Shown here piece by piece: positions 389-58,197 of a DNA stretch of 64,000 nucleotides. A program made the translations under genes and the position numbers. Origin of the DNA: Tetracentron sinense. Lineage: Eukaryota; Streptophyta; Magnoliopsida; Trochodendrales; Trochodendraceae. The stretch covers positions 26,295,250 through 26,359,249 of the forward strand of contig CM026570.1 in assembly GCA_015143295.1 (NCBI GenBank), read 5' to 3'. The notes beneath the pieces are model-generated. The model saw only the letters and a program-made list of their open reading frames with translations, made no database searches and had not been told where the DNA came from. Each line of letters opens with the position of its first letter. The stretch's first letter is position 1.

Positions 389-389
389 T

Positions 390-18526: not shown

Positions 18527-19186
18527 AATAGATTCCTTGTTGGAATTCCATCATCACCCAAACATATCTCTGATTATCCAACTGTCACTTTCAAGTAATC
18601 TCAAATTGAGACTATTTTGGTGGAATCAAAATAATTAGGTTACTGTTCAGTGATAAATGAAATCCTCAGGTCTAAGAATTCACATATCAAGTTTCCGGTA
18701 ATTGAGTGAACATCTAAATGATAGTAACTTTAAAATCAAATGTCTCTCCCGGTGATGCAATCAGTTAGTGTACAATTAAGCACTCATATGTCGATGGGTA
18801 GTCAACATTTCAATAGCTCGAGATAGAGCTATATCTCAACTATTAAGAACATCCAATGTTGTGTCTTGTACTTTTATTTTCCTTTTGGCTGTCCTATAAG
18901 GGTATGCCAAACCCCACACTCCTTCTAAGTGGGTTTTTTAAAAAAAAATCCAAACATTGTGGCGGGCACCTAAGTGAAGTGTCCAACTTCACCCATAGCT
19001 GTGAATAATTTTGGCATAAGGAAATGAAAAGCTAAATCTACCAGTATTCGTCCGAGGCCAAACACTTCGCTTTTTTCTACGATTTGTTCTAAGGACCTTT
19101 CCTCGGTATCTCATACCGAGTTGATCATCTCATGATCGGTATATAGTCAACCACCCATAATGAATGCAATAAAGAAAGCATAGACA

Positions 19187-19211
19187 ACAATATTAATTTG
19201 ATTAATATTGT
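19187..19211. other. Perfect 11-bp stem hairpin (unit 2)
   Basis: ACAATATTAAT, loop TTG, ATTAATATTGT. The same hairpin is kept with small changes in units 4 (about 42720) and 5 (about 53746), so it predates amplification. Function unknown. Confidence 0.7.
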
Positions 19212-19454
19212 CTTACAAGTAAATAACTTTTCTTGGGCACTTAGTCTAACAAAGAATTCATCAAGGAGGACTTTCCACGGGTTGCAGCAGTTAGCAAGCA
19301 TCCCGATTTAGGTTCCTATGGTTGTGTGTTCAAATACCACTCTTCAACTTACCATGGTGCCCGTAGGGAAATTTCGAGTGTTTCGGAACGAACACTCAAT
19401 GGGACTAGTCCTTGCCTCAGAGGTTTTGGGACACCCACCATTACCAAAAAATAA

Positions 19455-19625
19455 GATAGGCAGGCGGGACATGAATGGATTGTAGGCACCCTCACTGGAG
19501 GCATTCTGGGAATTGGATGACTAGGAGGGGCATGCCTAAGTTATGCCCTAAAAAATACGAACGGGCTTTATACCCTTGGAAGAAGTGACTTTGTCGTTCG
19601 AGGCTTTAGAGGGCCTCTCACTCAT
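19455..19625 (-). pseudogene. PF20167-like N-terminal fragment (unit 2)
   Basis: Minus-strand counterpart of the unit 1 fragment, beginning MSERPSKA, the likelier start because the upstream ATG frame closes early in units 2-5. It lies about 280 bases downstream of a TATA box at 19901. Fossil, broken at several points. Confidence 0.4.
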
Positions 19626-19900
19626 AGTCCTAGGGGCTCGATGAAGTGGAGATTCATGCCCTTCTTCATTGAAGTGGGTGTTTGGCTGAGGTGCAAACCG
19701 AGAGGAAGGGAGGTTGCTGAGGGTTGTGAGATTGGTTAAGGGAAGTGAGATATAGAATGAGAGAGTAAGGGTTGGATGAACTATTTAGGTGTTTGGTTTA
19801 ACCGTGAGAGAAGGGTTGAGGCTTTAGGGGCTTGGGTGTGTAAGAACTCCCAAGGGTTGTTTGGGGCTGTGAACTTGGGATTGAGGTGAGGGAACTTTCC

Positions 19901-19910
19901 CTATTTATAG
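19901..19910 (-). promoter_or_regulatory. TATA box before PF20167-like frame (unit 2)
   Basis: CTATAAATAG on the minus strand at the position kept in all five units. The neighbouring G run is only four long here. Confidence 0.45.
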
Positions 19911-20491
19911 ACCTTGAGAGAGAGAGAGGGGGGGAGGAGACAGAAAATTGTTAGGTCTCCTCCTTATTGGTTGGGCTACTTATGGAATTACATTAAGAAG
20001 TTTTGATTCCTTGACCCCATGTAAAAACGGAATTCATGCTTGACCCCTTGTAAAAATCGAATTCAATAGTAAGTATGACCCATTCTGCAACATAATAACA
20101 TACATTGAAAAAACATTTGATACTGCTCACACAACGAATAAAATAAAGGTTCAATAATTGGACTAGAGATCATTTTTAAGTGGGGAAACAAGTTGATATG
20201 CATCAAATTAAGGTTCACTAAAACAACAAAACAAAAAAATGAAAAATAAATGAGAAGATCAAATAGGAATGTATATCAATAAGTTTAAACCAGCATGTTC
20301 CATGCTTTTCAGATCAAATAGACATGTGTATTATACTAACTCAACTTCTAAACCGGCATGTTCAAGGGGTTTCTTGAATTTCAAGTATTCAATTTCATTC
20401 TACAGAATATAAGAAAAGAATAAGTCTTCCATATCAATTATCAGATAAAAAAAACAAATAATGTCTCAATAAATAAACAATATCTTCTCAT

Positions 20492-20655
20492 CTCGAGTGA
20501 TTTTGACTTGTCATAACGACCCTACATTGGGTTTGCAGTAGCTAAAATTGATGTTCAAGCATTTAGTGTCGCTTGTATTCCCGCTTTTGTAATGCTTATC
20601 ATTTGTTGTTCCTTGGATCAATTGGAATCGTTCCGCATAGATCATTGTTAGAAAC
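20492..20655 (-). pseudogene. MCM6 pre-sensor-1 exon (unit 2, module A)
   Basis: The minus-strand frame shows EQQ.[14 protein letters not shown], then ANP, GRYDKSKSLE. This is the pre-sensor-1 hairpin and sensor-1 part of the MCM AAA+ domain (MCM6: [22 protein letters not shown]). The copy has stops in this frame, and the donor is changed from GAG|GTGAG to GAG|ATGAG. The exons that should follow (SRFD arginine finger and beyond) are deleted in this unit: sequence jumps from AAACAATAT directly to CTTCTCATCTCGAG. Confidence 0.82.
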
Positions 20656-20752
20656 ATCGCTATAACATTCAATAGTCAAGACCCACTTATATAAAATATA
20701 AACCAGATACCTACATAGTTGAAATCAAATATCTAAGGGGATTTTTCAACTT

Positions 20753-21330
20753 ACAAAACTTTGAGGTTGGAGAGGGTGGTGAACTCTTTAGGAATGGATC
20801 CTGTCAGCTTGTTGTTTATCAGACGACTATACTATCAAGTTTGAAAGTGTTTTCAAGTGTGTTAGCATATCAGACAATCTGTAATACAAACAATGTACTG
20901 CAAAATTCAAAAACTCATGACTAGTGATCTCCAACTAACTAAAAAGATATGCTTACAGAAATTCAAGTGACTTCAACTTAGTAAAAGCTTTGGAATTTCT
21001 CATTCAAATATGTTCCAATATAAATCAATGCTAAGATGGTTCTTCAAATTGCCAAATTCCTAAGGGATTCTCCCTCTAATATTGTTCCTATAAAGCTCCA
21101 TACAACCGATCAAGTACATAACCTCAATTACACAAACAAACAATTTTTTAAAAAAAAGATAATTACAAAAAAAAAACAGAGCTTTAACTTATCCAAGGTG
21201 GAGACAAAGAAATTCAAGAAAAAAAGGGAATCATTTTCTGAAATTAGTTCAACAGAGATGGAATTACAAGTACTGAAGATGTTTAAGTTCATCGGGCTTC
21301 GATCCCAAAGTCCCAAGAATATTTAGAATT
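20753..21330 (-). pseudogene. SERK/LRR1-type LRR exons 3-6 (unit 2, module A)
   Basis: Minus-strand exons of a small extracellular leucine-rich-repeat protein of the SERK / LRR1 (At5g21090-like) type. In transcription order: SELGELQHLQYL-like exon (about 21330-21265), ELYRNNIRGRIP..FGNLK (about 21105-21040), KAFTKLKSLEFL (about 21010-20952) and INNKLTGSIPKEFTTLSNLK (20830-20753), ending at TTTT|GTAAGTTG. One-LRR-per-exon structure is typical of this family. In-frame stops occur (for example after GRIP). Signal-peptide and N-cap exons are missing here, being cut off with the right half of the foldback element. Confidence 0.8.
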
Positions 21331-21431
21331 GCCCAAATCACTACAGATAAAAGAAAAAGATAAAAACCAAGAAAACGTATGTAGACGAGATGATTCAGTT
21401 AAATAGAGAGAATTTAGAGCAAAAAGATTAC

Positions 21432-21838
21432 GTAACGAGAAAGAAATCTTGAGGCCACGATGACCTTTAATTAACAATAATTAAAGTGAAGATTAATATT
21501 TAATTATATTAGGGTATCACTTTCTCTAGTCGGAATCCGTAAAACCACGGGAAAGTGTTTGGGTTTAATCGCGGGTTCTGGTCATCGGATTCGATATTCG
21601 ATAATTACCAGTGAAACCAGGAGGTACCCACCCGGTATTCTCGTGTTGCGTGTCAGTCTACTATCTGAACGATTACTCGTCATGCTGGTTCCATTATGCA
21701 TCGATTCGCACAACCACCGTGCAATCGGTGCTCAAACCCAGTAAATCCGACCGACATGTAATACAAGAATACCTGGTGGGTACCTCCTAGTTTCACTGGT
21801 AATTATCGAACAACGAATCCGATAACCAGATCCGACGG
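21432..21838. repeat. Foldback element, right-truncated (unit 2)
   Basis: Long inverted-repeat element described at 32987. Here the left arm and the centre (TCTCGTGTTGCGTGTCAG) are present, but the right arm stops at GACGGCTAAAT and joins LRR1-upstream sequence (TAAATAATAAAAAAAC). Confidence 0.8.
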
Positions 21839-22424
21839 CTAAATAATAAAAAAACCATAAATTCGAAACATGGATAACACAATATCAATAAGATTAAAGC
21901 AAAAAAAAGCAGCCAAATATGAATAGCAGTTTGATGCCCAATTTTAAAACATAAATCAAAGCAAATATTTTTTTCATTTTAATAATTGGCATTCTTTTAC
22001 ACGACATTTGTGAATTCTTCTAACTGCGATCAAACTCTATTTCAACCATGGATCTATCGTAGTCACCTAAAGGCGAAATTCAATGACTTCCAAAAAAATA
22101 TGACAATTATATAAATTAGTTCAATTAAAATAGAAGACCAGTAAAAAATGTGAGTAATAAACAATCTTTGATGAAGTAATGAATTAAAGGATATTTCATG
22201 CTTTCAGATCAAATGGGGATGCGTATTATATTATATAATTATTATATTTCTCAACTTCTGTACCAACATCTTCAAGGGATTTGTTGAATTTCAAGTATTC
22301 AATTTCATTTTCCCGAATATAAGAAAAGAATAAGTATCCCATATCAGATAAAAAAACAAATAATGTCCACATAAGCAAACTATGTGGATAGAACGTGTAA
22401 ATAATGGTAAGATATGTTCTGAGT

Positions 22425-22620
22425 TTTAACACACCTGAAGTTCGAAATGACTTCGAGCAAAGACCTTTGACAGCCTGATCAAAGGTTCCAGTTTCCTAAA
22501 ATAGATGTTCAAGCATTTAGTGTCGCTTGTATTCCCGCTTTTGCAATGCTTATCATCTATTGTTTCATGGATCAACTGGAATCGTTCCTCAGTGAATGTT
22601 GTCAAAAACATCACTGTAAT
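22425..22620 (-). pseudogene. MCM6 fused exons (unit 2, module B)
   Basis: The pre-sensor-1 exon (AAGCATTGCAAAAGCGGGAAT, the SITKAGI region in another frame) is joined without an intron to the KLEPLIRLSKVFARSHFEL exon. The sensor-1, arginine-finger and lid exons that lie between them in module A are deleted. The joint reads open through KLEPLIRL but out of the original MCM6 frame on the 5' side. It ends at CAG|GTGTG, a good donor. Confidence 0.8.
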
Positions 22621-22704
22621 ATTTCAGAGTCAAGACTCACTCATATAAAATCAGAACATAATAACTACATACTTGAAATCAAATAAGAAAGTGAGGATTT
22701 TTGA

Positions 22705-23412
22705 ACTTAAAAAACTTTGAGTTGCAGAGGGAGGTGAACTCTCTAGGAATGGATCCTGTCAGCTTGTTGTTGTTCAGACAACTATACCATAAGTTTGAGA
22801 GAGTTTTCAAGTCTGTTATAATATCAAACCATCTTTAATATAAACATTATATTACAAGAACCGAAGATGCTCGAGCTCGCCGAGCTCCGATCCCAAAGTC
22901 CCAGAAATACTAGAATTGCCCAAATCCCGGCAGATAATTAAAAAAGATAAAAACCCAGAAAACGTATATTTTTTTTTATCGAAAAATCAAGAAAACATAT
23001 ATAGGCGAGAAGATTCAGTTATAAGAGAATTTGAAGGTGAAAGCTTTATCTATCTTAGAGACGAATAACATGGTTATTTATGTCGCAGGTGACATGGAAC
23101 CAGGTGCAGGGATTATCCAGTGTAGGGCCCCAGCTCTGGAGAACATTAGTGGGGTCAGAGAGTCTACCTCTCAAGGCATGGATAGCATTTCCAGAAATTA
23201 AAAAGACGACAAAAAAAAAAAAAAAGATGAGACGAGATGAGAAGAGATGAGATGATGAAAGAAATCTAAAAACCCTTGAGAAGAAAAAAGAATAAAAGAA
23301 TAAAAATCAGTTCGATCATACCTTCAGAATTAGTTGAGAGCGTTGGAGAAACTTTAAGGAGAAACCAAGTAGTACTAAGAGAAGGAACCAGAGAGCCATT
23401 CAAGATGGTCAT
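22705..23412 (-). pseudogene. SERK/LRR1-type gene fragment with signal-peptide exon (unit 2, module B)
   Basis: The best-preserved 5' part of the LRR gene. Exon 1 (23412-23322) is open from ATG: MTILNGSLVPSLST, hydrophobic [16 protein letters not shown], a signal peptide that ends at GAAG|GTATGA. Exon 2 (about 23191-23057) is open: [20 protein letters not shown] then [20 protein letters not shown], the LRR N-terminal cap with the Cys motif PCTWFHVTC. Its acceptor is changed from CCAG to CTGG, which should impair splicing. Exon 3 reads SGTLGSELGELEHLRFL. Exons 4 and 5 are missing. Exon 6 (22790-22706) has NKLTGSIP-type sequence. There is no kinase or C-terminal part, so MCM6 sequence follows instead. 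Confidence 0.82.
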
Positions 23413-23959
23413 TGGAATGCTTCTTTCCCTCTTAGGAAGAAATGATGAAGATATGAAGAAACTAGAAATAGTGTTTTAAGGTAGAATTAAGGTTTTATTG
23501 CCTAATATATTTTCTAAGTAGGCAAACAAAGTTTTAGTTTTGCCTACATCATGTCTATGTGTCATATTCATCCAAACAAGTGTTTAAGTTACGCATGTTT
23601 CTAAACAAAAAATCATAAATTCGAAACATGGATAACATAACATCAGTAAGAATAAAGCAAAAAAAAAAGGTAACCAAGTATGAATAGTATTTTGATGCCC
23701 ATTTCTAAACATAAGCAAACTAAATCAATTCTGTTTTTCTTTTAGTAATTAGCATTCTTTTACACGATATTTGTGAATTCTTACTGTTTGAACTCAATTT
23801 CAAGCAAGGATCTACCGTAGTGACCGAGAGGTGAAATTCAATGATATCCAAATAAAAATATGACAATCATATATATTAGTTCAATCAAAATAAAATATCG
23901 GTAAAGATGGTGAATAATAAACAATCTATTATGAAGTAATGAATTACAGGTATTGAATT

Positions 23960-24940
23960 AACCGAAGAATTAGAGGTTGATTATTTTGCCATCATAACCA
24001 TACTTATGTTTTCTTGGTATCAATGTAGAGTAGATGTTTCATAAATTATGACTCATTTTCTGAATTAGTTAGTCACGGCTCAACTAAAAAATATAAATAT
24101 TGAACTCAAGCCACAACAAAGTAAGTTTCAATAACATTATGAAGAAGCACTTTAGGTGCAAGAAGCAACTTAAGTCGCACACTATAGAGCGAGAGAAATT
24201 TGAGGTGAAGTATCATATGCTAACATTCAACCAGACTTAAGCATTATATAGTTGATAAATTATACAAAAGAAATGTTGAGCCACTTTCTATATTAAATAC
24301 CAAGTCAAAGTTTGTATTCAGTTAAACAAGAAATATTCATGTCAAGTCACAAGTGTTTGTTCTACATACATCATAACCCTACGTATGTTGACTTTTTCTT
24401 TTTTCTTTTTTGATAGATAACGAGAACATTTAATAAAGAAGAGAGAATATACAAACGATGCAAGAAACATCACCTAGATTTCTGAATTATGACCCTCCAT
24501 ATGCATCATAGCCCTACTTAAGTTTTCTTAATATCAATGTAGAATAGATGTTGCATCAATTATGACTCATTTTCTGAATTAGTTAGTCACAGCTCAACAA
24601 AATAAATAAATATTCAACTCAGGCCACAATAAAGTAGGTTTCAATCACATTCTCAAGAAACACTTTAGGTGCAAGAAGCAACTTAAGTCGCACACTATAG
24701 AATGAGAGAAATACGAGGTGAAGTATCATATGCTAATATTCAACCAGAGTTGAGCATTATATAGTTGAAAAATTATACAAAAGAAATGTGGTGCCACTTT
24801 CTATATTAAATAACAAGTCAAAGCATGCTTTAAGTTAAACAAGAAATATTCATGTGAAGTCACAAGTGTTTGTTCTACATGTTCAAACAATTTAAGTGGA
24901 TCACATTCTAACATATGCGCATTCTTTTCATGTGTGAGCA
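23960..24940. repeat. AT-rich block duplicated in tandem (unit 2)
   Basis: Two copies of about 400-480 bases (about 23990-24390 and 24500-24930) share ATCAATGTAGA.TAGATGTT, TTAGTTAGTCAC.GCTCAAC, CACTTTAGGTGCAAGAAG and AACAAGAAATATTCATGT. Between them unit 2 alone has about 110 extra bases (about 24393-24500) with TTTTTTGATAGATAA, resembling a reversed LINE tail. No coding signal. Confidence 0.8.
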
Positions 24941-24978
24941 TGGTATAAAACACTATTATAAGTAATATGGATAAAGAT

Positions 24979-25498
24979 CTAGGAACCACGGATACTTCAA
25001 ATAGGGATTCGTACCCGTATCCGATACGGTGGGATACGTACGGGATAGGGCTGAAACGTATCCGGTTAATTAAAAACAAAATTTTTATTCCGGATACGGC
25101 TCCGATACAACCGGGATACGGCCGGGATACGAGATTTTTTTTTTTTTGGAGACCCAGGGGAGTGACCCTATCACTTTTTTTTTTTTTGCCGCGTTTGTTT
25201 TTGCATGGCCATGATCTTCTTTATATTTTGCTTAATGGATAATAGGATGACTTTCTTTTTTGGTTAATGGATAATGAGATGACCCTATTTCTTTTGCTTT
25301 TGCATGGAGATGGATATTTTTTTATACATAAACAGAACTGAACCAATGGTTATTTTGTAATTAAAATACAAAATATAGTACTATTATTATTTTAAAAAAA
25401 ATTACAGACGTATCCTAGCCGTAACCGTATCCTGTTTTTTTAGGTTATGCCGTATCGCCATATCTGTATCGTATCGTACCCGTATCCGTGCTTCCTAG
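24979..25498. mobile_element. Non-autonomous hAT-like element, 520 bp, unit 2 only
   Basis: Terminal inverted repeats CTAGGAACCACGGATAC / CTAGGAAGCACGGATAC (one mismatch), followed by GGGTACG / CCGTATCC motifs. Flanks are ATAAAGAT (24971-24978) and ATACAAAT (25499-25506). The empty site in unit 4 reads ATACAGAT (49524-49531), so each flank differs from the ancestral 8-mer by one base. This confirms an 8-bp duplication and a fairly old insertion. No coding content. Confidence 0.9.
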
Positions 25499-25696
25499 AT
25501 ACAAATACATTTGTATTGTGATAAGAACCATAAGGGAAAAAGAACAAATAGAATGGAATAGACTCCAAACCCAAGCCCAAAGAGATCAGCTCACATAAAA
25601 GTTATACAGAAGAGATGATTCAAAACCTTAAATACAAATTGGAATGCATCAACATGAGTGCGCTAAAGTGTCATGTTAAGTATTTGAGTGTAATAG

Positions 25697-25933
25697 CTAA
25701 TGAGTGCAAGCTGAAAATTTCATGGCTGCAAATCCAAATTCAGAGTTGAGTTTTGGTTGGAACACGCACAAGAGACCGAATGCAGAAGAGCCCCAAATAC
25801 GATGATAACCTTGCTGCTTTGAGAGCCCAAGTTTGAGGTCTAGATTCTGTGATTTATGTGGTGTACTCAAGTTTGCATTTTGAGATTTTTGCGAATTATT
25901 CAAAGAGACGGTAAATTTTACCACAGCCAACAT
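25697..25933 (-). other. Open frame kept in units 2 and 4, unidentified
   Basis: A 78-codon minus-strand frame (KFTVSLNN, SSAFGLLCVFQPKLNSEFGF) is open in units 2 and 4 (49722-49958), and broken in unit 3 (about 36840-37080). The product is not recognised. It follows the PF20167-like piece on the same strand and may be its degenerate continuation. Conservation may only reflect recent copying. Confidence 0.3.
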
Positions 25934-26059
25934 GTACGGTAATTGGTCCTTAGATTAAACCAACAGACTAAATTTCAAATCTTGAACATTCAAATGCAAC
26001 AACAATTGTAAAGAACCTTCAGTCTCAAGAAACCATCATAGAAACTAAAATAAAATTAC

Positions 26060-26640
26060 TAGCGCAATCGAACAAAAACTATTTTTTTCTTACAGGACAT
26101 GGTAATTGTTCAACATAAAAGGGGGATGTGGCTTACCATCTTGCATAGCACCTTCATGATGTCTAATGTGCATAACAAGAGCATCATCAACTGACCAATG
26201 TGTGCTGACAGGCAAATCGGCTCCCTCTCCATGATGGCATGAGGCAATCGCGCTCGATATTAGCACACATGATCATGTGTGCCATACGAGAATCAGGAGT
26301 AAGATCCCTTAGGGCAATGTGGGAAACAATTCAAGTCTATCTACCCCAAACATGGATGACGCAACAACATCAAGGAAATGGGGATCGGCATCAGCCCTCT
26401 GTAAGTATGGAAAATAGGCATTAGAAACAAGCGAGGTCTGAATCAACCGAGAAATGAGGTCAAGAGAAACATCAATAACCTGACCACGAACTTGGACTAT
26501 GAAAGTACGTTGTTAATCGTCAATGTTGTAGACATTGGAATAAAATTCCCTTACCAACTCAACTAGGCATTGCCCTGATAGACTTAATGCCTTCCCATTC
26601 ACGAGATTGGAAAATCACGGGAAGAGGGAGGTAGACAAAT
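26060..26640 (-). pseudogene. PF20167-like transposon protein, middle fragment (unit 2)
   Basis: Read over more than one frame on the minus strand: QCPVELVREFYSNVYNI, QRTF.VQVRGQVIDVSL, ISRLIQT, NAYFPYLQRADADPHFLD, then MAHMIMCANIE and DALVMHIRHHEGAM. The pattern 'ELVREFY.N ... V.VRG..I..S ... I' is the signature of the putative plant transposon protein (PF20167) found in plant retroelements. Fossil, broken in several places. Its N-terminal partner is probably the SERPSKASKG fragment of the next unit, separated by later insertions. Confidence 0.6.
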
Positions 26641-26881
26641 GAAGGGGGAATCCGAATAAAATATTAATTTAATATGGGAAAATTTTTAATTCCATAGATC
26701 ATAAAAAATAGAAACATTCAAGGTTCTCGAATGGCAATAAATAATTTGTTCACCTTTCTTCGGGACGAAAAAGAAACTTGCAGGATCGTTAAGAAAATTT
26801 GTCGAGACTTCTCGAAGCTCTAAGCCTGGCTCAATCTCGAAACGCCACTACCCCCGTAGCGTTTTTAGATCACCGATAGTT

Positions 26882-27589
26882 ATATAACTCTAATGGAAGG
26901 TTTTTGGTGAAATCTTATCTGCAGGCTGTCAACTCGGTCCCCATTGTGAGGTTCCCTAGCAAGTTGGTCTGGTTTAATGGGGTACCCTCTAAGGTATCGG
27001 TTTTTCTTTGGTCTGCTGTTTTGGATAAGATTTTGACATTGGACAATTTGCAAAATAGAGGTTGGAGTCTTCCAAATCGTTGTTGTTTGTGTATGGTGGA
27101 GGAGTCGGTTGACCATTTATTTCTTCACTGCTCGTTTGCGTGCAGGCTTTGGTTGTATTTTCTTTCTCAGCTCGGGGTCGCTTGGGTATTCCCCTCGTCA
27201 TTCATGGGCTTGTTATCCGGTTGGCTCTCAGTTATATTGCATTGCCCGTTGCATTTTGTTTGGGCTCTTCTCCCAAGGGTGATATCGTGGTCTTTCTGGA
27301 AAGAGCGGGACAGGAGGGTTCTTCAGAATTCCGCATTGCCTTTGGAGAGTGTGTGCTATCGTTCGCGTGCCTTGTTGCGGGATTGGGTTGCAGCTAAATA
27401 TGACATGGAGGAGTTAGGGTTGGACGAGATTATATCTTAGTGGAGTCAGGAGAGTATCCTTTAGCTTTTGTGTTGTTGTAGTTCCTTGTCCTTGATGTTA
27501 GTGTTTAGTTTTTGCTTTGTGCCATTTGCGATTCACATTTTGTGAATCTTCCTTTTTTTAATAAAAATTGATATTACCAATAAAAAAAA
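26882..27589 (+). mobile_element. 5'-truncated LINE with 12-bp TSD (unit 2)
   Basis: The C-terminal part of a LINE polyprotein: GRFLVKSYLQAVNS region, VWFNGVPSKVSVFLW, KILTLDNLQNRGWSLPNRCC, LCMVEESVDHLFLHC, WSFWKERDRR (zf-RVT type, with Cys and His spacing kept), ending EIIS and stop near 27440. A 3' UTR follows with the hairpin GATTCACATTTTGTGAATC (27530-27548) and an A-rich tail. Target duplication: TCACCGATAGTT (26870-26881) and TCACCGAAAGTT (27590-27601), the latter mutated at one base; unit 4 keeps both almost intact. The insertion is shared by units 2, 3 and 4 and by the inverted copy. Confidence 0.9.
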
Positions 27590-27601
27590 TCACCGAAAGT
27601 T

Positions 27602-28229
27602 CAAACCTTAAAAATATGAAAAACCCTAACCCTCTCTCTTCTACGTTTTCTGAGTAGCATTCCTTGAGAAAAGTTCTCCAATCCCCTTAAAAAAAACTCT
27701 TCTATCTTATAATGAGCATTAAAAAGAATCTATTAATACTAATGAATCCATCCATTGATAAAAGGGACCCCATCCCTATTAAATCTCGAAAAAAGTGAAC
27801 TCTCATAGCCTCCACAACAACTTGCGTATCAGATTTCAAATAGGAGATCTAATCCTTATTTTTTAAGGAGATAAAAGATGGGAGAGAGAGTTAACGCAAG
27901 GAGAGAGAGAGATAGAGAGTGGGCGTGGATAGGGTTCTAAACCTTATCCTCTATTTTTGATTTTTCAACTAAATATCTAATCTCATTAGATAATACTTTA
28001 ATTAATTAATTAACACAAGCTACTTAATAGGGATTAAAGTGTTTCCAACTTCATGGGCGTGGCCCACCTCTATGCTCCATTTTAGCTATTAATTAGGATA
28101 TGGATCATATCCATTATCCATTTAAAACTAGACGTGGGTACGGGTCAACCCCATTAACCCTATTCATGAATACAACTTCATACCTGCATGTACATGAGTC
28201 ATACCCATCAATCCCCATAGAATGTTAAT
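27602..28229. other. Non-coding unit sequence
   Basis: AT-rich with purine-rich GGAGAGAGAG runs near 27880-27920. No gene seen. The same sequence is in unit 4 (51623-52250) and mostly deleted in unit 3. Confidence 0.6.
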
Positions 28230-29100: not shown

Positions 29101-29251
29101 CCAAAAAAAATGTTAACCCATTGAACCAAAAAATACGTTAAACAAAGGAATTGCAACTGACGAGGGATATGCATAATGCAATTTTTTTTAAAAAAAAGGA
29201 AAGTTGGCGTTAGGCAGACCCCGACCAGAATAAGATAAACTAAAAAAGAGA

Positions 29252-48165: not shown

Positions 48166-48719
48166 GAATGCTTCTTCCTCACTAACGAAGAAGTGATGAA
48201 GATTGGAAGAAACTAGAAAATAGTGTTTTAAGGTAGAATTAAGGTTTTATTGCTTAAAATATTTTCTAAGTTGGCAAACAAAGTTTTAGTTTTGCCGACA
48301 TCATGTCCATGTGTCATATTCATCCAAACAAGTGTTTAAGTTCAGCATGTTTCCCAACAAAAAAATCATAAATTTGAAATATGGATAACATGACATCACT
48401 AAGATTAAAACAAAAAAAAAAGGAAGCAAATATGAATAATATTTTGATACCCATTTCTAAACATAAGTCAAATTAAATCAAATCTGTTTTTCTTTTAGTA
48501 ATTGGCATTCTTTTACATGATATTTGTGAATTCTTACTGTTCAAACTCTATTTCAAGCATGGATGTACTGTAGTCACCGAGAGGTGAAATTCAATGATAT
48601 CAAAATAAAAATATGACAATCATATATATATTAGTTCAATCAAAATAAAATATCGGTAAAGATGGTGAATAATAAAAATTCCATAATGAAGTAACGAATT
48701 ACAGGTATTGAATTAACCG

Positions 48720-49450
48720 AAGAATTAGAGGTTGATTATTTTGGCATCATAACCCTACTTATGTTTTCTTAGTATGAATGTAGAGTAGATGTTTCATCAT
48801 TTATTACTCATTTTCTGAATTAGTTAGTCACAGCTCAACTAAAAAGAAAAAATATTGAACTCAAGTCACAATACAGTAAGTTTCAATAACATTCTTAATA
48901 AACACTTTAGGTGCAAGAAGTAACTTAAGTCGCACACTATATATCATAAATATTTTTTTCTTCATTTTCCAATTTCTATATTAAATAACAAGTCAAAGCA
49001 TGCTTTAAGTTAAACAAGAAATATTCATGTCAAGTCACAAGTGTTTGTTCTACATGCATCATAACCCTACTTACGTTTTCTTGATATCAATGTAGAGTAG
49101 ATGTTGAATCAATTATGACTCATTTTCAGAATTAGTTAGTCACAGCTCAACTAAAAAGAATAAATATTAAACTCAAGTCACAATAAAGTAAGTTTCAATC
49201 ACATTCTCAAGAAACACTATAGGTGCAAGAAGCAACTTAAGTCGCACACTATAGAATGAGAGAAATATGAGGTGAAGTACATATGGTAATATTCGACCAG
49301 ACTGAAGCATTATATAGTTGATAAATTATACAAAAGAAATGTGGTGCCACTTTCTATATTAAATAAAAAGTCAAAGCATGCTTTAAGTTAAACAAGAAAT
49401 ATTCATGTCAAGTCACAAGTGTTTGTTCTACATGTTCAGACAATTTAAGT
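48720..49450. repeat. AT-rich block duplicated in tandem (unit 4)
   Basis: Counterpart of 23960-24940; the copies meet near 49060. Confidence 0.75.
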
Positions 49451-49721
49451 GGATCGCATTCTAACAGATGCACATTCTTTTCAAGCGTGAGCATGCCATA
49501 CAACACTATTATAAGCAATATGGATACAGATACATTTGTATTGTGCTAAGAACCATACGGGAAAAAGAACAAATAGAATCGAATAGACTCCAAACCCAAG
49601 CCCAAAGAGATCAGCTCACATAAAAGTTATACATAAGAGATGATTCAAAACCTTAAATACAAATTGGAATGCATCACCTTGAGTGCGCTAAAGTGTCATG
49701 TTAAGTATTTGAGTGTAATAG

Positions 49722-49958
49722 CTAATGAGTGCAAGCTGAATATTTCATGGCTGCAAATCCAAATTCAGAGTTGAGTTTTGGTTGGAACACGCACAAGAGA
49801 CCGAATGCAGAAGAGCCCCAAATATAATGATAACCTTGCTTCCTTGAGAGCCCACGTTTGAGGTCCAGATTCTGTGATTTATGTGGTGTACTCAAGTTTG
49901 CATTTTGAGATTTTTGCGTATTCTTCAGAGACACGGTAAATTTCACCCCAACCAACAT
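49722..49958 (-). other. Open frame matching 25697-25933, unidentified
   Basis: 78 codons, with SSAFGLLCVFQPKLNSEFGF identical to unit 2 and several substitutions elsewhere. Not recognised. Confidence 0.3.
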
Positions 49959-50109
49959 GTACGGTATTTGGTCCTTAGATTAAACCAAAAGACTAAATTT
50001 TAAATCTTGAACATTCAAATGCAAGAACAATTGTAAAAAAACCTTCGGTCTCAAGAAACCATCATAGAAACAAAAAAAAAAGTACTAGCGCAATCGAACA
50101 AAAACTATT

Positions 50110-50640
50110 TTTTTCTTACAGGACATGGTAATTGTTCAACATAAAAGGGGGATGTGGCTTACCATCTTGCATTGCACCTTCATGATGTCTAATGTGCATA
50201 ACAAGAGCATCATCAACTGAGCAATGTGTGCTGACAGGCAAATCGGCTCCCTCTCCAAGATGCCATCAGGCAATCGCGCTCGATATTAGCACACATGATC
50301 ATGTGTACCATACGAGAATCAGAAGTAAGATCACTTAGGGCAATGTGGGAATCAATTCAAGTCTATCTACCCCAAACATGGATGACGCAACAAGATCAAG
50401 GAAATGGGGACCGACATCAGCCCTATGTAAGTATGGAAAATATGCATTAAAAACAAGCGGGGTCTGAAATAAACCGAGAAATGAGGTCAAGAGAAACATC
50501 AATAACCTGACCACGAACTGGGACTTTGAAAGTCCGTTGTTAATCGTCAATGTTGTAGACATTGGAATAAAATTCCGTAACCAACTCAACTGGACATTGC
50601 CCTGATAGACTTAATGCCTTCCCATTCACGAGATTAGAAA
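50110..50640 (-). pseudogene. PF20167-like transposon protein, middle fragment (unit 4)
   Basis: Same motif series as in units 2 and 3. Fossil with several breaks. Confidence 0.58.
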
Positions 50641-50909
50641 ATCACGGGAAGAGGGAGATAGACGAATGAAGGGGGAATCCGAATAAAAAATTAATTTAAT
50701 ATGCAAAATTTTTTAATTCCATTGATCTTAACAAATAGAAAGATTCAAGGTTCTCGAATGGCAAGAAACAATTTGTTCACCTTTCTTCGGGACGAAAAAG
50801 AAACTTGCAGGTATCATCGAGAAAATTTGTCGAGACTTCTCGAAGCTCCAAGCCCGGCTCAATCTTGAAACTCCACTACCCCCGTAGTGTTTTTAGATCA
50901 CCGATACTT

Positions 50910-51610
50910 ATATAACTCTAATGGAAGGTTTTCGGTGAAATCATATCTACAGGCTATCAACTCGGGCCCCATTGTGAGGTTCCCCAGCAAGTTGGTCTGG
51001 TTTAATGGGGTACCCTCTAAGGTATCGGTTTTTCATTGGTCTGCTGTTTTGGGTATGATTTTGACATTGCAAAATAGAGGTTGGAGCCTTCCAAATCGCT
51101 GTTGTTTGTGTATGGTAGAAGAGTCGGTTCACCATTTATTTCTTCACTGCTCGTTTGCGTGGAGGCTTTGGTTGTATTTTCTTTCTCAGCTCGAGGTCAC
51201 TTGGGTATTCCCCTCGTCATTCATGGGCTTGTTATCTGGTTGGCTCTCAGTTTTATTAGACTGCCCGTTGGATTTTGTTTAGGCTCTACTCCCAGGGGAG
51301 ATATCGTGGTCTTTCTGGAAAGGGCGGGACAGGAGGGTTTTTTCAGAATTCCACAATGCCTTAGGAGAGTGTGTGCTATCGTTCGCGTGCCTTGTTCCGG
51401 GATTGGGTTGCAGCTAAATATGGCATGGACGAGTTAGGGTTCGACGAAATTATATCTTAGTGGAGTCAAGGGAGTATCCATTAGCTTTTGTGTTGTTGTA
51501 GTTCCTTGTCCTTGATGTTAGTGTTTAGTTTATGCTTTGTCCCTTTTCGATTCACATTTTATGAATCTTCCTTTTTTTAATGATATTGATATTACCAATT
51601 AAAAAAAAAT
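50910..51610 (+). mobile_element. 5'-truncated LINE with TSD (unit 4)
   Basis: NSNGRFSVKSYLQAINSGP, VWFNGVPSKVSVFHW, NRGWSLPNRCCLCMVEESVH and HLFLHCSFAWRLWLYF. Target duplication TCACCGATACTT (50898-50909) and TCACCGATAGTT (51611-51622). The 3' hairpin at 51549-51567 has one mismatch in the stem. A four-codon loss (LDNL) and a frame change near 51280 are visible. Confidence 0.9.
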
Positions 51611-52249
51611 TCACCGATAGTTCAAACCTTAAAAATATGAAAAACCCTAACCCTCTTTCGTCTGCGTTTTCTGAGTAGCAATCCTTGAGGAAAGTTTTCC
51701 AATCCCCTTAAAAAAAATTGTGTAACTTATAATGACCATTAAAAAGAAACTATTAATGCTAAATGAATCCATCCATTGATAACAGGGACCCCATCCCTAT
51801 TAAATCTCGAAAAGAGTGAACTCTCTTAGCCTCCACAACAACTTGCGTATGGGATTTCAAATAGGAGATCTAATCCTTATTTTTTTAAGGAGATAAAAGA
51901 TAGGAGAGAGAGTTGAAGCAAGGAGAGAGAGAGAGTGGGCGTGGATAGGGTTCTAAACCTTATCCTCAATTTTTGATTTTTCAACTAAATATCTAATCTT
52001 ATTAGATAATACATTAATTATTTAATTAACACAAACTACTTAATAGGGATTAAAGTGTTTCCAACTTCATGGGCGTGGCCCACCTCTATGCTTCATTTTA
52101 GCTATCAATTAGGATATGGATCATATCCATTATCCATTTAAAACTAGACGTGAGTACGGGTCAAACCCATTAACCCTATTCATGAATACAACTTCATACG
52201 TGCATGTACTTGGGTCATACCCATCAATGCCCATAGAATATTAATTAAA

Positions 52250-52587
52250 TAATTAATTATCATAGATTAAATCTATGGTCCGTGCTTGGCAAGCTACCTT
52301 GAGCACCTTCACATATTGCTCTAGGATATACTATCCCTTGCTAACCCAGTGTTAACTCATTGAACCAAATAATATCGTAGGCCCGATTCGAGCACCGAGG
52401 AGTCCGTATTGCCTAATTTGTAAAAAGGGTTAAGTCTAAAACCAACATAGCTCGTCAAATCCTAAGTTGGGTTATCTTTTTTTCTATGGTTTCTTCTGAC
52501 ATTTGTATTTAATTAAAACCCACGTGTTTGAATTAGTTTTGACGAGTTCAGAGCTCGTATGCCTAATTTGTGCACCGAGAATTCCGC
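52250..52587. repeat. Truncated minisatellite (unit 4)
   Basis: The left flanking repeat (52250-52345) and about one and a half motif copies remain; the second flank is deleted. Confidence 0.75.
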
Positions 52588-52589
52588 AT

Positions 52590-52870
52590 CATCTTGAACT
52601 AACTTAGATAAGTGGAGAGTGAACGAATCACCATCTAGCAAAACCTCAGCAAGAGGGGGACAAAACTTTGATCCAGCGTTGGCCACTTTGTTGGTCTCCC
52701 TATAGATGTCACTAATAGAAACTAAGTTTAGCCTACCGCATAATTTATCAATGTCATCCAATTGAATCCCAGTTATTAACAAAAATGGATCCCTCCAAAG
52801 AAACTTGTTGATCTGCTTAATTCTTCCAATATCATTATTCAACATAGGCCCTCGAGAATAAAATACTATC
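52590..52870 (-). pseudogene. RNase H-like LINE fragment (unit 4)
   Basis: MLNNDIGRIKQINKFLWRDP, GRLNLVSISDIYRETNKVAN, SKFCPPLAEVLLDGDSFTL. The longest open copy of this domain piece; its end is fused to minisatellite sequence. Confidence 0.65.
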
Positions 52871-54011
52871 TAACCCATAGCCTATAAAAATCGTCAGGGT
52901 TCCAAGATATCAGATTTGAGCTATAAGAAACAATTTCTCAAAAAGGTTTTCAAAACTCTTTTGAAAACATTTAATTATATTTTGATACAGAAAATAATAT
53001 TTAAAACTTTCCTTTAAAATCACCTGCGCAGGATTTCAGCTCAAATTATATCTTCCCTAATCTTGGATAATCTCCTTATTTAATTGGTACAAATTCCTTG
53101 TTGGAATTCTATCATCACCCAAACATATCTCTAATTATCCAACTGTCACCTTCAACTAATTTCAAATGGAGACTATTTTGGTGGAATCAAATAATTAGGT
53201 TACTATTCAGTGATAAATGAAATCCTCATGTCAAAGAATTCACAGATCAAGTTTCTGGTAATTGAGTCAACATCTAAATGTTAGAAACTTAAAAACCAAA
53301 TGTCTCTCCCGATGATGCAATCAGTTAGTGTACAATTAAGCACTCATATGTCGATGGGTAGTCAACACTCCAATAGCTCGAGATAAAGCTATATCTCAAG
53401 TATTAAGAACATCCAATGTTGTGTCTTGCGCTTTTATTTTCCTTTTGGCTGTCCTGTAGGGGTATGCCAAACCCCCCACTCCTTCTTAGTGGCTTTAAAA
53501 AAAAAAAATCCAAACATTGTGCCAAGCATCTAAGTGAAGTGTCCAGCTTGACCTATAGCTGTGAATAATTTTGGCATAAGGAAATGAAAAGCTAAATCTA
53601 TCAAAGTTGGCCCGTGCCCAAACACTCCGCTTTTTTCTACAATTTGTTCTAAGGACCTTTCCTCGGTATCTCATACCGCGTTGATCATCTCATGATCGGT
53701 ATATAGTCAACCACCCATAATGAATGCAATAAACAAACCATAGACAACAATATTAATCAAATTAATATTCTCTTACAAGTACATGACTTTTCTAGGGTAC
53801 TTAGTCGAACAAAGAATCCATCAAGAAGTACTTTCCGCGGGTTGGAGCAGTTAGCAAGCATCCCGAGTTAGGTTCCTATGGTTGTGTGTTCAAATACCAC
53901 TCTTCCACTTACCATGGTGCCCGTAGGGAAATTTCAAGTGTTTTGGAACGAACACTCAATGGGACTAGTCCTTGCCTCGAAGGTTTTGGGACACCCATTA
54001 CCAAAGAAATA

Positions 54012-54193
54012 AGATAGGCAGGCGGGACATGAATCGATTGTAGGCACCCTCACTGGCATCATTATTGAATCCGGGAATTGGATGACTAGGAGGGGCATGC
54101 CTAAGTTGGGCCCTAGAATATAAAAGGGCTTTACCCCTGGAAGAAGTGGCTTTGCCCTTCGAGGCTTTCGAGGGCATCTAACTCATAGTCTTA
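54012..54193 (-). pseudogene. PF20167-like N-terminal fragment (unit 5)
   Basis: Counterpart of the unit 4 fragment, more degraded. Fossil. Confidence 0.35.
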
Positions 54194-54422
54194 GGGGCTC
54201 GATGAAGGGGAGATTAATGCTCTTCCTCATTGAAGTGGGTGTTTGGCTCAGTTGCAAACCGAGAGGAAGGGAGGTTGCTAAGGGTTGTGGCTTTGGTTAA
54301 GGGAGGTGAGATATAGAATGAGAGAGTAAGGGTTGAATGAACTCCTAGGGTGTTTGGCTTAACCGTGAGAGAAGAATTGAGGGTTTAGGGGCTTGGGTGT
54401 GTAAGAACTCCCAAGGGTTGTT

Positions 54423-54480
54423 GGGGGGGGGGGGGGGGGGGAACTTGGGATTCAGGTGAGGGAACTTTCCCTATTTATAG
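54423..54480 (-). promoter_or_regulatory. TATA box and longest poly-G/C leader (unit 5)
   Basis: TATAAATAG on the minus strand (end near 54480) with 19 consecutive G on the plus strand at 54423-54441, the longest of the five copies. Confidence 0.45.
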
Positions 54481-55104
54481 ACCTTGAGAGAGAGAGTGGG
54501 CGAGGAGACCAAAAACAAGATAGGTCTCCTCCTTATTGGTTGGGCTGCTTATGGAATTACATCAAGAAGTTTTGATTCCTTGACCCCATGTAAAAACGGA
54601 ATTTATGCTTGACCCCATGTAAAAACTGAATTCACTAGTAAGTATCACCCATTCTGCAACATAACATACATTGAAAAAACATTTGATGCTGCCAACACGG
54701 CGAATAAAATAAAGGCTCAATAATTCGACTAGAGATCATTTTCCAGTGGGGCAAACCAGGTGATAAACATCAAATTACAATTCACCAAAAGAACAAAAAA
54801 AAAAAATCAAATATAAACGAGAAGATCAAATAGGCATGTATATCAATAAGTCTAAACCAGCATGTTCCATGCTTTTCAGATCAAATAGACATGTGTATTA
54901 TATTAACTCAACTTCTAACCGGCATGTTCAAGGGGTTTCTTGAATTTCAAGTATTCAATTTCATTCTACTGAATATAAGAAAAGAATAAATATTCCAAAT
55001 CAATTATCAGATAAAAAAAAACAAATAATGTCTCAATAAATCAACAATATGGACAGATCATGTAAAACATGGTAAGATATGTTGTGAGGTTTAACACACC
55101 TAAA

Positions 55105-55530
55105 GTTCCAAATGACTTTGAGCAAAGGCCTCTGACAGCCTGATCAAAGTTTCCAGCTGCCTAACTATTCCCAGGAGCTGTATCACCTCTACGGAGCAAC
55201 ATAAGAATCCACCAAAAGTTTCCTAGCTTCTTAGCTGAGCTACGTGAATTTGAAAAAATTTTCAAGGGGTGAGGGTTATTTTCGAACAAAAGAATATCAC
55301 CTCCTATTTCAAGGAAGAGTAGACAAACCTTGGGTTTCAAAGACTTCGCAAATACGATATAACACATTAGTAGCACAGTAGTGAATGCAGGAGCAAGTGC
55401 ATCTTCATGCTTTTATTAACTCTCACGATGTGGTAATCCGTTTGATCGTCTAGATCACCAATCATAACATACACCAGATCAAACCTTGAAAGGATAGCAG
55501 GAGGAAGGGACAATTTGTTCCACGCTTTCA
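55105..55530 (-). pseudogene. MCM6 exons A-C (unit 5, module A)
   Basis: The same exons; the first has lost a few codons around HIAHH (a short gap after CACGATGTGGT). RRGDTAPGN is visible in the second exon. Pseudogene. Confidence 0.84.
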
Positions 55531-55654
55531 GAGCCTAGATTCATTGTAGATGATATATTAATATCGAATACTCAAACCATCATATCATGCACGATTGGCA
55601 TTAGTTACAAGCTTAGGAGAAAACAAGGCAATAAGTTTACAATATCTTCTCACC

Positions 55655-55830
55655 TCGAGTGATTTTGACTTGTCATAACGACCCTACATTGGGTTTGCAG
55701 CAGCTAAAATTCATGTTCAAGCATTTAGTGTCGCTTGTATTCCCGCTTTTGTAATGCTTATCATTTGTTGTTCCTTGGATCAATTGGAATCGTTTCGCAT
55801 AGATCATTGTAAGAAGCATAGCTATAACAC
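55655..55830 (-). pseudogene. MCM6 pre-sensor-1 exon (unit 5)
   Basis: SITKAGIQATLNA and GRYDKSKSLE with GAG|GTGAG donor, as in unit 4. Confidence 0.83.
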
Positions 55831-55914
55831 TCAATAGTCAAGACCCACTTATATAAAATCTAAACAAAATACCTACATAGTTGAAATCAAATATCAAAGG
55901 GGATTTTTCAACTT

Positions 55915-57520
55915 ACAAAACTTTGAGGTTGGAGACGGTGGTGAACTCTTTAGGAATGGATCCTGTCAGCTTGTTGTTGATCAGACGACTGTATTATCAA
56001 GTTTGAAAGAGTTTTCAAGTGTGTTAGCATATCAGACAATCTTTAATATTAACATTGTGTTGCAAAATTCAAAAACTCATGACTGGTGATCACCAACTAA
56101 TTAAAAAGATATGCTTTCAGAAATTTAAGTGACTTCAACTTAGTAAAACTTTGGAATTTCTCATTCAAATATGTTCCAATATAAATCCATACTAAGATGG
56201 TTCTTCAAATTGCCAAATTCCTCAGGGATTCTCCCTCTAATATTGTTCCTATAAAGCTGCTTACAACCGATCAAGCAACATACCCACAATTACTCAAACA
56301 AACAATTTTTAAAAAAAAGATAATTACCAAAAAAAATAGAGCTTTAACTGATCGAATGTGGAGACAAAGAAATTCAAGAAAAAAAGGGAATCATTTTCTG
56401 AAATTAGTTCAACAGAGATGGAATTACAAATTCTGAAGATGTTGGAGTTCACCAAGCTCCGATCCCAAAGTCCCAAAAATATTTAGACTTGCCAAAATCC
56501 ATGCAAATAAAAGAAAAAGATAAAAACCAAGAAAACGTATTTAGGCGAGATGATTTAGTTAAAAAGAGAGAATTTGAAGCGAAAAGATTATGTAACGAAC
56601 CGGATTTTCGGAAGAAATCTTGAGGCCAGGATGACCTTTAATTAACCATAATTAAAGTGAAGATTAATAATTAATTATATTAGGGTATCACTTTCCCTAA
56701 TCGGAATCCGTAAATCCTCGGGAAAGCGTTTGGGTTTAACCGCGGGTTCTGGTTATCGGTTTCGGTATTCGATAATTACCAGTAAAACTAGGAGGTACCC
56801 ACTCGGTATTCTCGTATTGCGTGTCAGTCTGCTATCTAAACGATTACCCATAATGCAGGTTCCATTATGCATTGATTCGCACAGCCATCGTGCAATCGGT
56901 ACCCAAAACCGAGTAAATCCGACCGACACGTAGTACGAGAATGCCTGGTGGGTACCTCCTGGTTTCAGTAGTAATTATCGAACACCGAATCCCATAACCA
57001 AATCTCACGATTAAACCCAAACACTTTTCTGAGGTTTTACGGATTCCGATTAGGAAAAGTGATACCCTAATATAATTAAATATTTATCTTCACTTTAATT
57101 ATTGTTAATTAAAGGTCATCCTGACCTCAAGATTTCATCCGAAAATTCGGGTCGTATTATAGACGAATAACTTGGTTATTTGTGTCTTAAGTGACATAAA
57201 ACCAGGTGCAGGGATTAACCAAAATAGGTTCCCAGCTCTGGAGAACATTGGTGGGATCAGAAAGTCTGCTTTTCAAAGCATGCAGAGCATTTCCTGCAAT
57301 TAAGAAGACGAAAAAAAAAATGATACAAGATGTGATGATGAAAGAAATCTAAAAACCCTAGAAAAGAAAGAAGAATAAGAGAATAGAAATTGGTGAAAGT
57401 TGGATCATACCTTTGGAGTTTGTTGAGAGCGTTGGAGAAACTTTTAGGAAAAAGTCAGGTAGTACTGAGACAAGGAACCGAAGCGTCATTGAAGATGGTG
57501 ATTGGAATGCTTCTTCCTCA
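55915..57520 (-). pseudogene. SERK/LRR1-type gene fragment (unit 5, module A)
   Basis: Signal-peptide exon near 57520-57415 ([23 protein letters not shown]), N-cap exon near 57300-57170, foldback insertion, LRR exons near 56500-56415, 56275-56195, 56165-56110 and 55990-55915. The LRR 4 exon lies next to an open frame on the opposite strand that is only a shadow. Pseudogene. Confidence 0.82.
56592..57160. repeat. Foldback element (unit 5)
   Basis: Same site and arms as in unit 3; both arms complete. Confidence 0.85.
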
Positions 57521-58197
57521 CTAAGGAAGAAGCGATGAAGAAACAAAAAAACTAGAAAATAGTGTTATAAGGTAGAATAAAGGTTTTATTGCTTAAAATA
57601 TGTTTCTAAGTGGGCAAACAAAGTTTTAGTTTTGCCTAAAACATGTCCATGTGTCATATTCATCCAAGCAAGTGTTAGTTATGCATGTTTCTAAATAATA
57701 AAAACAACATAAATTCAAAACATGGATAACACAATATCAATAAGATTAATGCAAAAAAAGCAACCAAATATGAATAGCATTTTGATGCCCAATTCTAAAC
57801 ATAAATCGAATTAAATCAAAGCAAATAATTTTCTCCTGTTAATAATTGGCATTCTTTTAGACGACATTTGTGAATTCTTCTAACTGCGATCAAACTCTAT
57901 TTCAAGCATGGATCTATCGTAGTCACCTAGAGGTGAAATTCAATGACATCCAAAAAAATATGACAATCATATAAATTAGTTCAATTAAAATAGAAGACCA
58001 ATAAAAAATGTGAGTAATAAACAATCGTTGATGAAGTAATGAATTACAGGATGTTCCATGCTTCCAGATCAAATGGGGATGTGTATTATATTATATAATT
58101 ATTATATTTCTCAACTTCTATACCAGCATGTTCAAGGGATTTGTTGAATTTCAAGTATTCAATTTTATTTTACCGAATATAAGAAAAGAATAAGTAT

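What the first reader, a model, noticed from the sequence alone, without database searches (positions are those of the whole stretch)
18527..58197. Tandem array of an 11-12 kb macro-repeat built from gene fragments and transposons
Seen: four head-to-tail units (the last cut short) with the same order of parts, periods of about 11.2, 12.3 and 11.0 kb, plus an isolated partial unit at 69-1708 and an inverted one at 60080-62668. Inference: unequal recombination multiplied a composite that already held MCM6-LRR fragments, a foldback element, a LINE and a minisatellite. Satellite-like amplification of captured host exons at this unit size is unusual.
Basis: seen in the sequence. Interest (0 to 1): 0.8.

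Follow-up and report, generated by a model that had tools for sequence, protein, structure and literature searches.

The report
Fossil tandem array of gene fragments
A block of plant-like DNA about 11 kb long, made of dead pieces of two genes and of transposons, was copied head to tail to about three and a half units long ago and has been decaying since; it is a clear example of a known kind of genome rearrangement, not a working element.

Summary
The array is real. Units start at 18518, 29772, 42052 and 53079 (periods 11254, 12280, 11027); the fourth ends at 58198; partial copies lie at 70-1714 (direct) and 60040-62676 (inverted). Units are 92-94% identical with private insertions and deletions, unlike an assembly artefact. 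Minus-strand exons come from MCM6 and from an LRR co-receptor of the SERK/BAK1 family; introns are kept, and the MCM6 piece was dead before amplification. Each full unit holds an older internal duplication, D1/D2; a foldback element entered D1 after D1/D2 split and before the units did. The unit tree is nearly a star, internal branches 2.5% of its length: quick amplification, little later homogenisation. U2's long period comes from a 1.7-kb LTR-like insertion, shared with the inverted copy. No Helitron ends or flanking terminal repeats were found. Best reading: stepwise tandem segmental duplication of an already dead composite; maize P1-wr is a published array of similar unit size. New member of a known kind.

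The parts
18518..29771 (.). Unit U1
   Evidence: Self-BLAST. Longest branch in the unit tree. Private gaps of 631 and 710 columns and a private 0.5-kb insertion.
29772..42051 (.). Unit U2
   Evidence: Self-BLAST. Carries the 1.7-kb LTR-like insertion, shared only with the inverted copy I.
42052..53078 (.). Unit U3, used as reference
   Evidence: Self-BLAST; gap of 731 columns after 52585.
53079..58198 (.). Unit U4, cut short where it meets element X1
70..1714 (.). Partial copy P, direct orientation, left end at an LTR-like terminus
   Evidence: 94.2% identical to U3 over 1645 ungapped columns.
60040..62676 (-). Partial inverted copy I, from the U2 lineage
   Evidence: Shares the LTR-like insertion with U2; of 863 columns, 15 sites join U2 with I, 1 joins U1 with I, 0 join U1 with U2.
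43838..47021 (-). D1 in U3: SERK fragment followed by MCM6 fragment, same orientation
   Evidence: blunt D1/D2 junction at 47021/47022, read.
47022..48705 (-). D2 in U3: older, deleted tandem copy of D1
   Evidence: Blocks 73-85% identical to D1; D1 and D2 form separate groups, 100/100.
44312..44787 (-). MCM6 exons (about residues 474-587 of animal MCM6) with an intron between, D1 of U3
   Evidence: Pfam MCM 4.1e-12 and 9.2e-07; MCM6 2.5e-10 is the best MCM row; splice-donor-like GTGAG after the first exon.
44073..44141 (-). Further MCM piece (AAA-lid)
   Evidence: Pfam MCM_lid 0.0015, below the curated cut-off.
46125..46271 (-). SERK LRR N-terminal exon, D1
   Evidence: PDB SERK1/SERK2/BAK1, best 2e-16.
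45151..45261 (-). SERK LRR exon (about residues 101-137), D1
   Evidence: Second stretch of the SERK/BAK1 match, i-Evalue 0.0036-0.0054 in the two alignments shown.
47836..47976 (-). SERK LRR N-terminal exon, D2
   Evidence: LRRNT_2 9.2e-08; SERK/BAK1 2.7e-20 for the whole sequence.
47463..47573 (-). SERK LRR exon (about residues 143-179), D2
   Evidence: Weak second stretch, i-Evalue 0.022-0.029; the D1 copy (about 44893-45001) scores 131 against it in the same frame.
45597..46124 (.). Foldback element in D1 of U3; 32990-33549 in U2, 56595-57155 in U4, part in U1
   Evidence: Self-inverted, 71-80% over the element in U2, U3 and U4; D2 at 47833-47836 is the uninterrupted site.
50929..51171 (+). 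LINE fragment, zf-RVT domain, U3
   Evidence: Pfam zf-RVT 4.5e-15.
50282..50602 (-). Transposase_32-like fragment, U3
   Evidence: Pfam 5.6e-05, below the curated cut-off.
40678..41282 (.). Minisatellite downstream of the LINE piece, U2 (U1: 28343-29009)
37846..39580 (.). LTR-like insertion in U2 with TG..CA ends and TTAAC on both sides
   Evidence: Empty sites in U1 and U3.
24979..25497 (.). Private insertion in U1 with 17-bp terminal inverted repeats and an imperfect duplication of about 9 bp
   Evidence: Empty site in U3.

Best explanation
This is a decayed (fossil) tandem segmental-duplication array, built stepwise in a plant-like genome. (1) Intron-bearing fragments of a SERK-family gene and of MCM6 became joined in one orientation. 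(2) That chimera was duplicated in tandem across a blunt junction (D1, D2). (3) A foldback element entered D1; LINE, Transposase_32-like and minisatellite pieces also lay in the segment, and the MCM6 piece was broken by stop codons. (4) The whole 11-kb segment was duplicated head to tail; U1 split off before U2 and U3 did, and U2, U3 and U4 then separated within a short interval. P's place in this order is unresolved. (5) The units diverged separately by substitution, deletion and insertion; a piece of a U2-type unit was copied in inverted orientation, and other repeats now cut the edges. The order in steps 2-5 is read from the sequence. The means of step 4, misaligned (unequal) recombination once two units existed, is inference, as is how step 1 came about. 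The array has no evident function of its own.
For: Collinear units and periods. 92-94% identity and private indels. The MCM6 474-517 exon carries the same three internal stops in 4 of 4 units, and U3 and U4 share a fourth. D1's SERK N-terminal exon has an internal stop in U3 and U4 and a frameshift in U2, and is absent from U1; D1's 101-137 exon has one stop in common in U1, U3 and U4 and a frameshift in U2. D1 and D2 separate 100/100; U2_D2 with U3_D2 against U1_D2 99/97. Foldback in D1, D2 uninterrupted. Near-star unit tree, internal branches 2.5% of length; two-by-two site patterns 12, 7 and 11 of 3419 columns against single-unit changes of 151, 99, 88 and 89. Insertion-site duplications in U1 and U2. 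I shares U2's insertion and 15 sites. The left array edge shares TTTAATG with the 98-bp minisatellite.
Against: The star is formally worse than the best tree (log-likelihood -10807.6 against -10799.6, two more branches), with U3+U4 at 72% bootstrap; two-by-two patterns total 30, against a mean of about 15 in 200 star simulations under a rough model, of which 0 reach 30. So some order or conversion exists. A short tree (321 columns) instead joins U1, U4 and P at 89/89, below the tool's star, so the regions do not agree. Some constraint or recent death is not excluded: in-phase codon-position differences rise 4.45, 5.58, 6.75% (variable sites 32 of 395, 37 of 394, 45 of 394), exonic stretches differ less than the rest of D1/D2 (5.59 against 7.36%), the MCM6 518-587 exon is open in U2, U3 and P, and D2's SERK N-terminal exon is open in U1 and U3 up to its last codon. 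The first duplication's junction and a homologous substrate were not found. Species unknown; no other individual compared.
Confidence: 0.78

Rival explanations
1. One rolling-circle or circular-DNA event: an 11-kb extrachromosomal circle carrying the composite was replicated as a concatemer and reinserted, giving several units at once and perhaps stray pieces such as P.
For: Nearly equal distances among U2, U3, U4 and P; no homologous repeats seen at the array edges.
Against: The D2 tree puts U1 outside U2+U3 (99/97), so at least two steps are needed. A weak U3+U4 signal exists. P is not shown to belong to the burst: the few shared sites join it to U1 (4 of 4, 2 of 4 and 5 of 6 two-by-two sites in the three quartets with U1 and P). 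No circle junction was identified.
Confidence: 0.1
2. The unit is a large non-autonomous transposon (Helitron, Pack-MULE or LTR type) that captured the exons and inserted repeatedly.
For: Two host gene fragments with introns in one orientation, a pattern known from transduplication (general knowledge); partial copies outside the array.
Against: No conserved Helitron 3' end: 1 candidate on the two strands of the 39.7-kb array, inside U1's private insertion, against 0-2 in five one-strand mononucleotide shuffles. Inverted pairs in U2 and U3 are only the foldback and one 17-bp pair (E 0.029); direct pairs are D1/D2, nearby small tandem pairs, the minisatellite and one 24-bp pair (E 0.029). The ends of the array, of P and of I fall in different phases of the unit.
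Confidence: 0.04
3. A satellite kept homogeneous by concerted evolution.
For: Head-to-tail order; a slight excess of shared site patterns that conversion could give.
Against: About 3.5 units in the window; most differences are private to one unit (427 single-unit changes against 30 two-by-two sites).
Confidence: 0.03
4. Assembly artefact.
For: No raw reads were available; a 68-base poly-C run at 59534-59601, next to the array, is technically suspect.
Against: 6-8% divergence, private insertions with site duplications, private deletions.
Confidence: 0.02

Closest known systems
Maize P1-wr cluster (PMC2686159; abstract and sections 8, 18, 19 read)
   Same: About 12-kb units head to tail, a TE insertion in some units only, a separated homologous sequence, edges shaped by end joining and retroelements, amplification in several steps.
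   Different: P1-wr has eleven nearly identical units with a Myb gene; here about 3.5 units at 92-94% carry only gene fragments, with little sign of homogenisation.
Transposon-captured (transduplicated) gene fragments, Pack-MULEs and Helitrons (features from general knowledge; review PMC13317346, abstract and section list seen only)
   Same: Fragments of two host genes, introns kept, in one orientation.
   Different: No Helitron ends, no flanking terminal inverted repeats, no common ends among copies.
Plant tandem arrays with TE parts, such as Cassandra arrays (PMC7215508) and rye subtelomeric blocks (PMC4857426); search listing only
   Same: Head-to-tail repeats linked with TE sequence.
   Different: Few units in the window, a very large unit, gene fragments inside, no sign of array-wide homogenisation.

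Membership tests
Tandem segmental duplication array | Collinear head-to-tail units of kilobase size | tested here: met
   four units, periods 11254, 12280, 11027.
Tandem segmental duplication array | Units share internal events that predate amplification | tested here: met
   Foldback in D1 of U2-U4 and in part in U1; D1/D2 in U1, U2 and U3.
Tandem segmental duplication array | Unequal recombination: homologous substrate at the first junction, or graded similarity between neighbours | tested here: inconclusive
   No homologous substrate at the array edges; weak U3+U4 grouping, 72%, contradicted in a short stretch.
Helitron | Hairpin and CTRR at a conserved 3' end, joined to TC in tandem (motif recalled) | tested here: not met
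   one candidate, inside U1's private insertion; five shuffles give 0-2.
Pack-MULE | Terminal inverted repeats flanking the captured fragments (recalled) | tested here: not met
   in U2 and U3 only the foldback and one 17-bp pair (E 0.029).
LTR-type capture or retrocopy | Intron loss or a flanking LTR pair (recalled) | tested here: not met
   MCM6 residues 517/518 are split by an intron with a GTGAG donor; no LTR-like direct pair around the fragments.
Satellite DNA | Many homogenised copies | tested here: inconclusive
   Not so in this window: about 3.5 units at 92-94%, mostly private changes. The rest of the genome could not be searched.
MCM6 fragment | Best similarity to MCM6 among MCM proteins | tested here: met
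   MCM6 2.5e-10, best MCM7 row 1.2e-07. In one search archaeal-type MCM chains score best and MCM6 (5.4e-07) is the best of the eukaryotic MCM2-7 rows.
SERK-family fragment | Best similarity to SERK/BAK1 ectodomains | tested here: met
   the top 19 rows are SERK or BAK1 chains in each (PDB chains only).

The most novel reading that the evidence does not exclude
The array is a proto-satellite caught early: a chimera of two dead host genes went through nested tandem amplification (3-kb, then 11-kb units), the second round by circular-DNA rolling-circle reinsertion, which also scattered pieces to both sides, so that higher-order repeats can be seeded by gene fragments without any transposon's help.
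Probability: 0.1. Interest if true: 0.5.

Novelty: new member of a known kind. Interest (0 to 1): 0.3.

Why it matters
It is a clearly ordered series of nested duplications: SERK-MCM6 chimera, D1/D2, foldback, units, then private insertions. Such a series shows how a genome can turn gene fragments into large tandem repeats and how such an array decays with little homogenisation. It also warns gene annotators: the open MCM6 and SERK stretches here are parts of broken pieces.

Tried and rejected
Assembly artefact: rejected on 6-8% divergence and private insertions with site duplications. Helitron ends: none above shuffles. Flanking inverted or LTR pairs: none beyond chance level. Purifying selection on the exons: first counted with two of nine pieces out of phase (5.05, 5.81, 6.07%), recounted in phase (4.45, 5.58, 6.75%); the rise is slight and not decisive. 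P as a member of the U2-U4 burst: I first read it so from branch lengths; the quartets and a short rooted tree do not bear it out, so I dropped it, and for that reason lowered the rolling-circle rival from 0.13 to 0.10 and the novel case from 0.12 to 0.10. Stops at the ends of the 143-179 exons: read GTAAGTT, a splice-donor-like sequence, and are not counted as death marks. The 17-base overlap at U1's 631-column gap looked like a LINE target-site duplication, but the missing stretch is MCM6 gene sequence, so it is read as a deletion between short repeats. D1/D2 microhomology: BLAST's 4-base overlap disappears when the sequences are read; the junction is blunt. The Rfam scan at gathering scores and the tRNA scan were empty. 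Six paper searches listed no report of this array; they cover only the open-licence library and did not name SERK or MCM6. No genome is held for the window. Dates in years were not attempted because species and rate are unknown.
Full report
OBSERVATION. The array stands as described. Self-comparison of the window gives U1 18518-29771, U2 29772-42051, U3 42052-53078 and U4 53079-58198, head to tail and collinear, with periods of 11254, 12280 and 11027. A partial copy P lies at 70-1714 and an inverted one, I, at 62676-60040. A multiple alignment of the six pieces gives ungapped identities of 92.3% (U1-U2, U1-U3), 92.0% (U1-U4), 93.9% (U2-U3), 93.5% (U2-U4), 94.1% (U3-U4), 92.7-94.2% (P with U1-U4), 95.6% (U2-I, including the shared insertion), 91.2% (U1-I) and 91.0% (U3-I). 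Columns filled in at least two of U1-U3 number 11856.

The uneven periods have simple causes. U2 carries a 1.7-kb insertion with TG..CA ends and TTAAC on both sides, with empty sites in U1 and U3. U1 has gaps of 631 and 710 columns and a private 0.5-kb insertion with 17-bp inverted ends. U3 has a gap of 731 columns. These private events and 6-8% divergence are not what a falsely duplicated assembly would give; long reads would settle it.

CONTENT. No genome is held. A plant source is inferred from the SERK matches and the 'putative plant transposon protein' match. The LRR piece belongs to the SERK/BAK1 co-receptor family: the top 19 rows are SERK or BAK1 chains in each. MCM6 pieces follow on the same strand, residues 474-517 and then 518-587 across a short intron whose start reads GTGAG. 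The plus strand holds a LINE zf-RVT piece, the minus strand a weak Transposase_32 match below its cut-off. These domain scans were made on U3 and its edges, not on every unit.

STATE OF THE EXONS. The MCM6 474-517 piece has the same three internal stops in 4 of 4 units, and U3 and U4 share a fourth, so it was dead before the units split. The 518-587 exon is open in U2, U3 and P, frameshifted in U4 and absent from U1. D1's SERK N-terminal exon has an internal stop in U3 and U4 and a frameshift in U2; D2's is open in U1 and U3 up to its last codon and mostly deleted in U2. With all pieces in phase, differences at codon positions one to three are 64 of 1439, 80 of 1434 and 97 of 1438 cells (4.45, 5.58, 6.75%); variable sites are 32 of 395, 37 of 394 and 45 of 394. 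Exonic stretches differ less than the rest of D1/D2, 5.59 against 7.36%. This is a slight tendency in the direction of constraint. I do not take it as working genes, because the pieces are broken fragments, but it tells mildly against a reading of wholly free decay.

NESTED HISTORY. The unit contains two tandem versions of the SERK-MCM6 piece, D1 (43838-47021) and D2 (47022-48705), with blocks 73-85% identical, joined bluntly. A tree of seven D pieces separates D1 (4) from D2 (3) at 100/100, so this duplication is older than the units. The foldback element sits in D1 of U2, U3 and U4 and in part in U1; D2 shows the uninterrupted site. It therefore entered after D1/D2 and before the units.

UNIT TREE. 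Internal branches of the U1-U4-P tree (first 5200 columns) are 2.5% of its length. Among 3419 columns shared by U1-U4, two-by-two patterns are 12, 7 and 11, against 151, 99, 88 and 89 single-unit changes. A star is formally worse by 8.0 log-likelihood units for two branches, and 0 of 200 star simulations (rough model, mean total about 15) reach the observed 30, so weak order or some conversion exists. U3+U4 has 72% bootstrap. With D1 as outgroup, U2_D2 and U3_D2 group against U1_D2 (99/97), so U1 split off before those two parted.

P is not placed. The five-unit tree leaves U1 and P on one side of U2+U3+U4 at 66%; quartets with U1 and P give 4 of 4, 2 of 4 and 5 of 6 sites for U1+P; a short tree with D2 outgroups (321 columns) joins U1, U4 and P at 89/89, not starred. 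I is a later derivative of the U2 lineage: it shares the insertion, and 15 sites join it to U2, against 1 for U1+I and 0 for U1+U2, of 863 columns.

EDGES. The left edge of U1 joins the 98-bp minisatellite (17064-18524) with a shared TTTAATG. The right edge of U4 joins element X1, present in fuller form at 2266-2876 and 59367-60049. P begins where an LTR-like end stops, so it may continue left of the window. I ends on one side against X2 and on the other against a repeat also seen at 5037 and 13864.

MECHANISM. Shown: the order of events above. Inferred: growth from two to several units by misaligned recombination. Rival: a rolling-circle reinsertion, which fits the near-star but not U1's earlier split. 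A mobile element with fixed ends is unlikely: no Helitron 3' end beyond chance, no flanking repeat pairs beyond chance level, and unit pieces end in different phases.

COMPARISON. Maize P1-wr is eleven 12-kb head-to-tail repeats; its paper invokes end joining, recombination and transposition (PMC2686159; abstract and sections 8, 18 and 19 read). That cluster carries a Myb gene in near-identical units; this array is more diverged, smaller and made of fragments. I rate it a new member of a known kind. Searches listed no paper on this array; none of them named SERK or MCM6.

Noticed in passing
59534-59601: A 68-base run of C (one A) interrupts element X2; such a run may be a sequencing or assembly fault.
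   Followed up: partly
14815-15605 and 17064-18524: Two blocks of one 98-99-bp AT-rich minisatellite just left of the array; the array joins the second block at a 7-base shared sequence.
   Followed up: partly
2266-2876, 58201-58675, 59367-60049: Element X, a dispersed repeat right of P, at U4's right edge and at I's left edge; X1 is cut at its left end at the junction with U4.
   Followed up: partly
3033-4483: A different LINE, with RVT_1 (1e-09) and zf-RVT (2.8e-08); DNA of 2150-5400 has no BLAST match to the units.
   Followed up: no
11339-11452: A short copper amine oxidase fragment on the minus strand (Pfam 1.1e-07).
   Followed up: no
48744-49434: A third level of small tandem duplication inside the unit (198-bp and 88-bp pairs, 91-98%); U1 has a different pair there (23990-24880).
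   Followed up: no
62677-62772: A repeat rich in CGATACG at I's right edge, also at 5037-5133 and 13864-13959.
   Followed up: no
18518-58198, 70-1714, 60040-62676: Transitions hardly exceed transversions between units (ratios 0.81-1.37 in the 13 pairs that overlap), unlike what I would expect of heavily methylated repeats.
   Followed up: no
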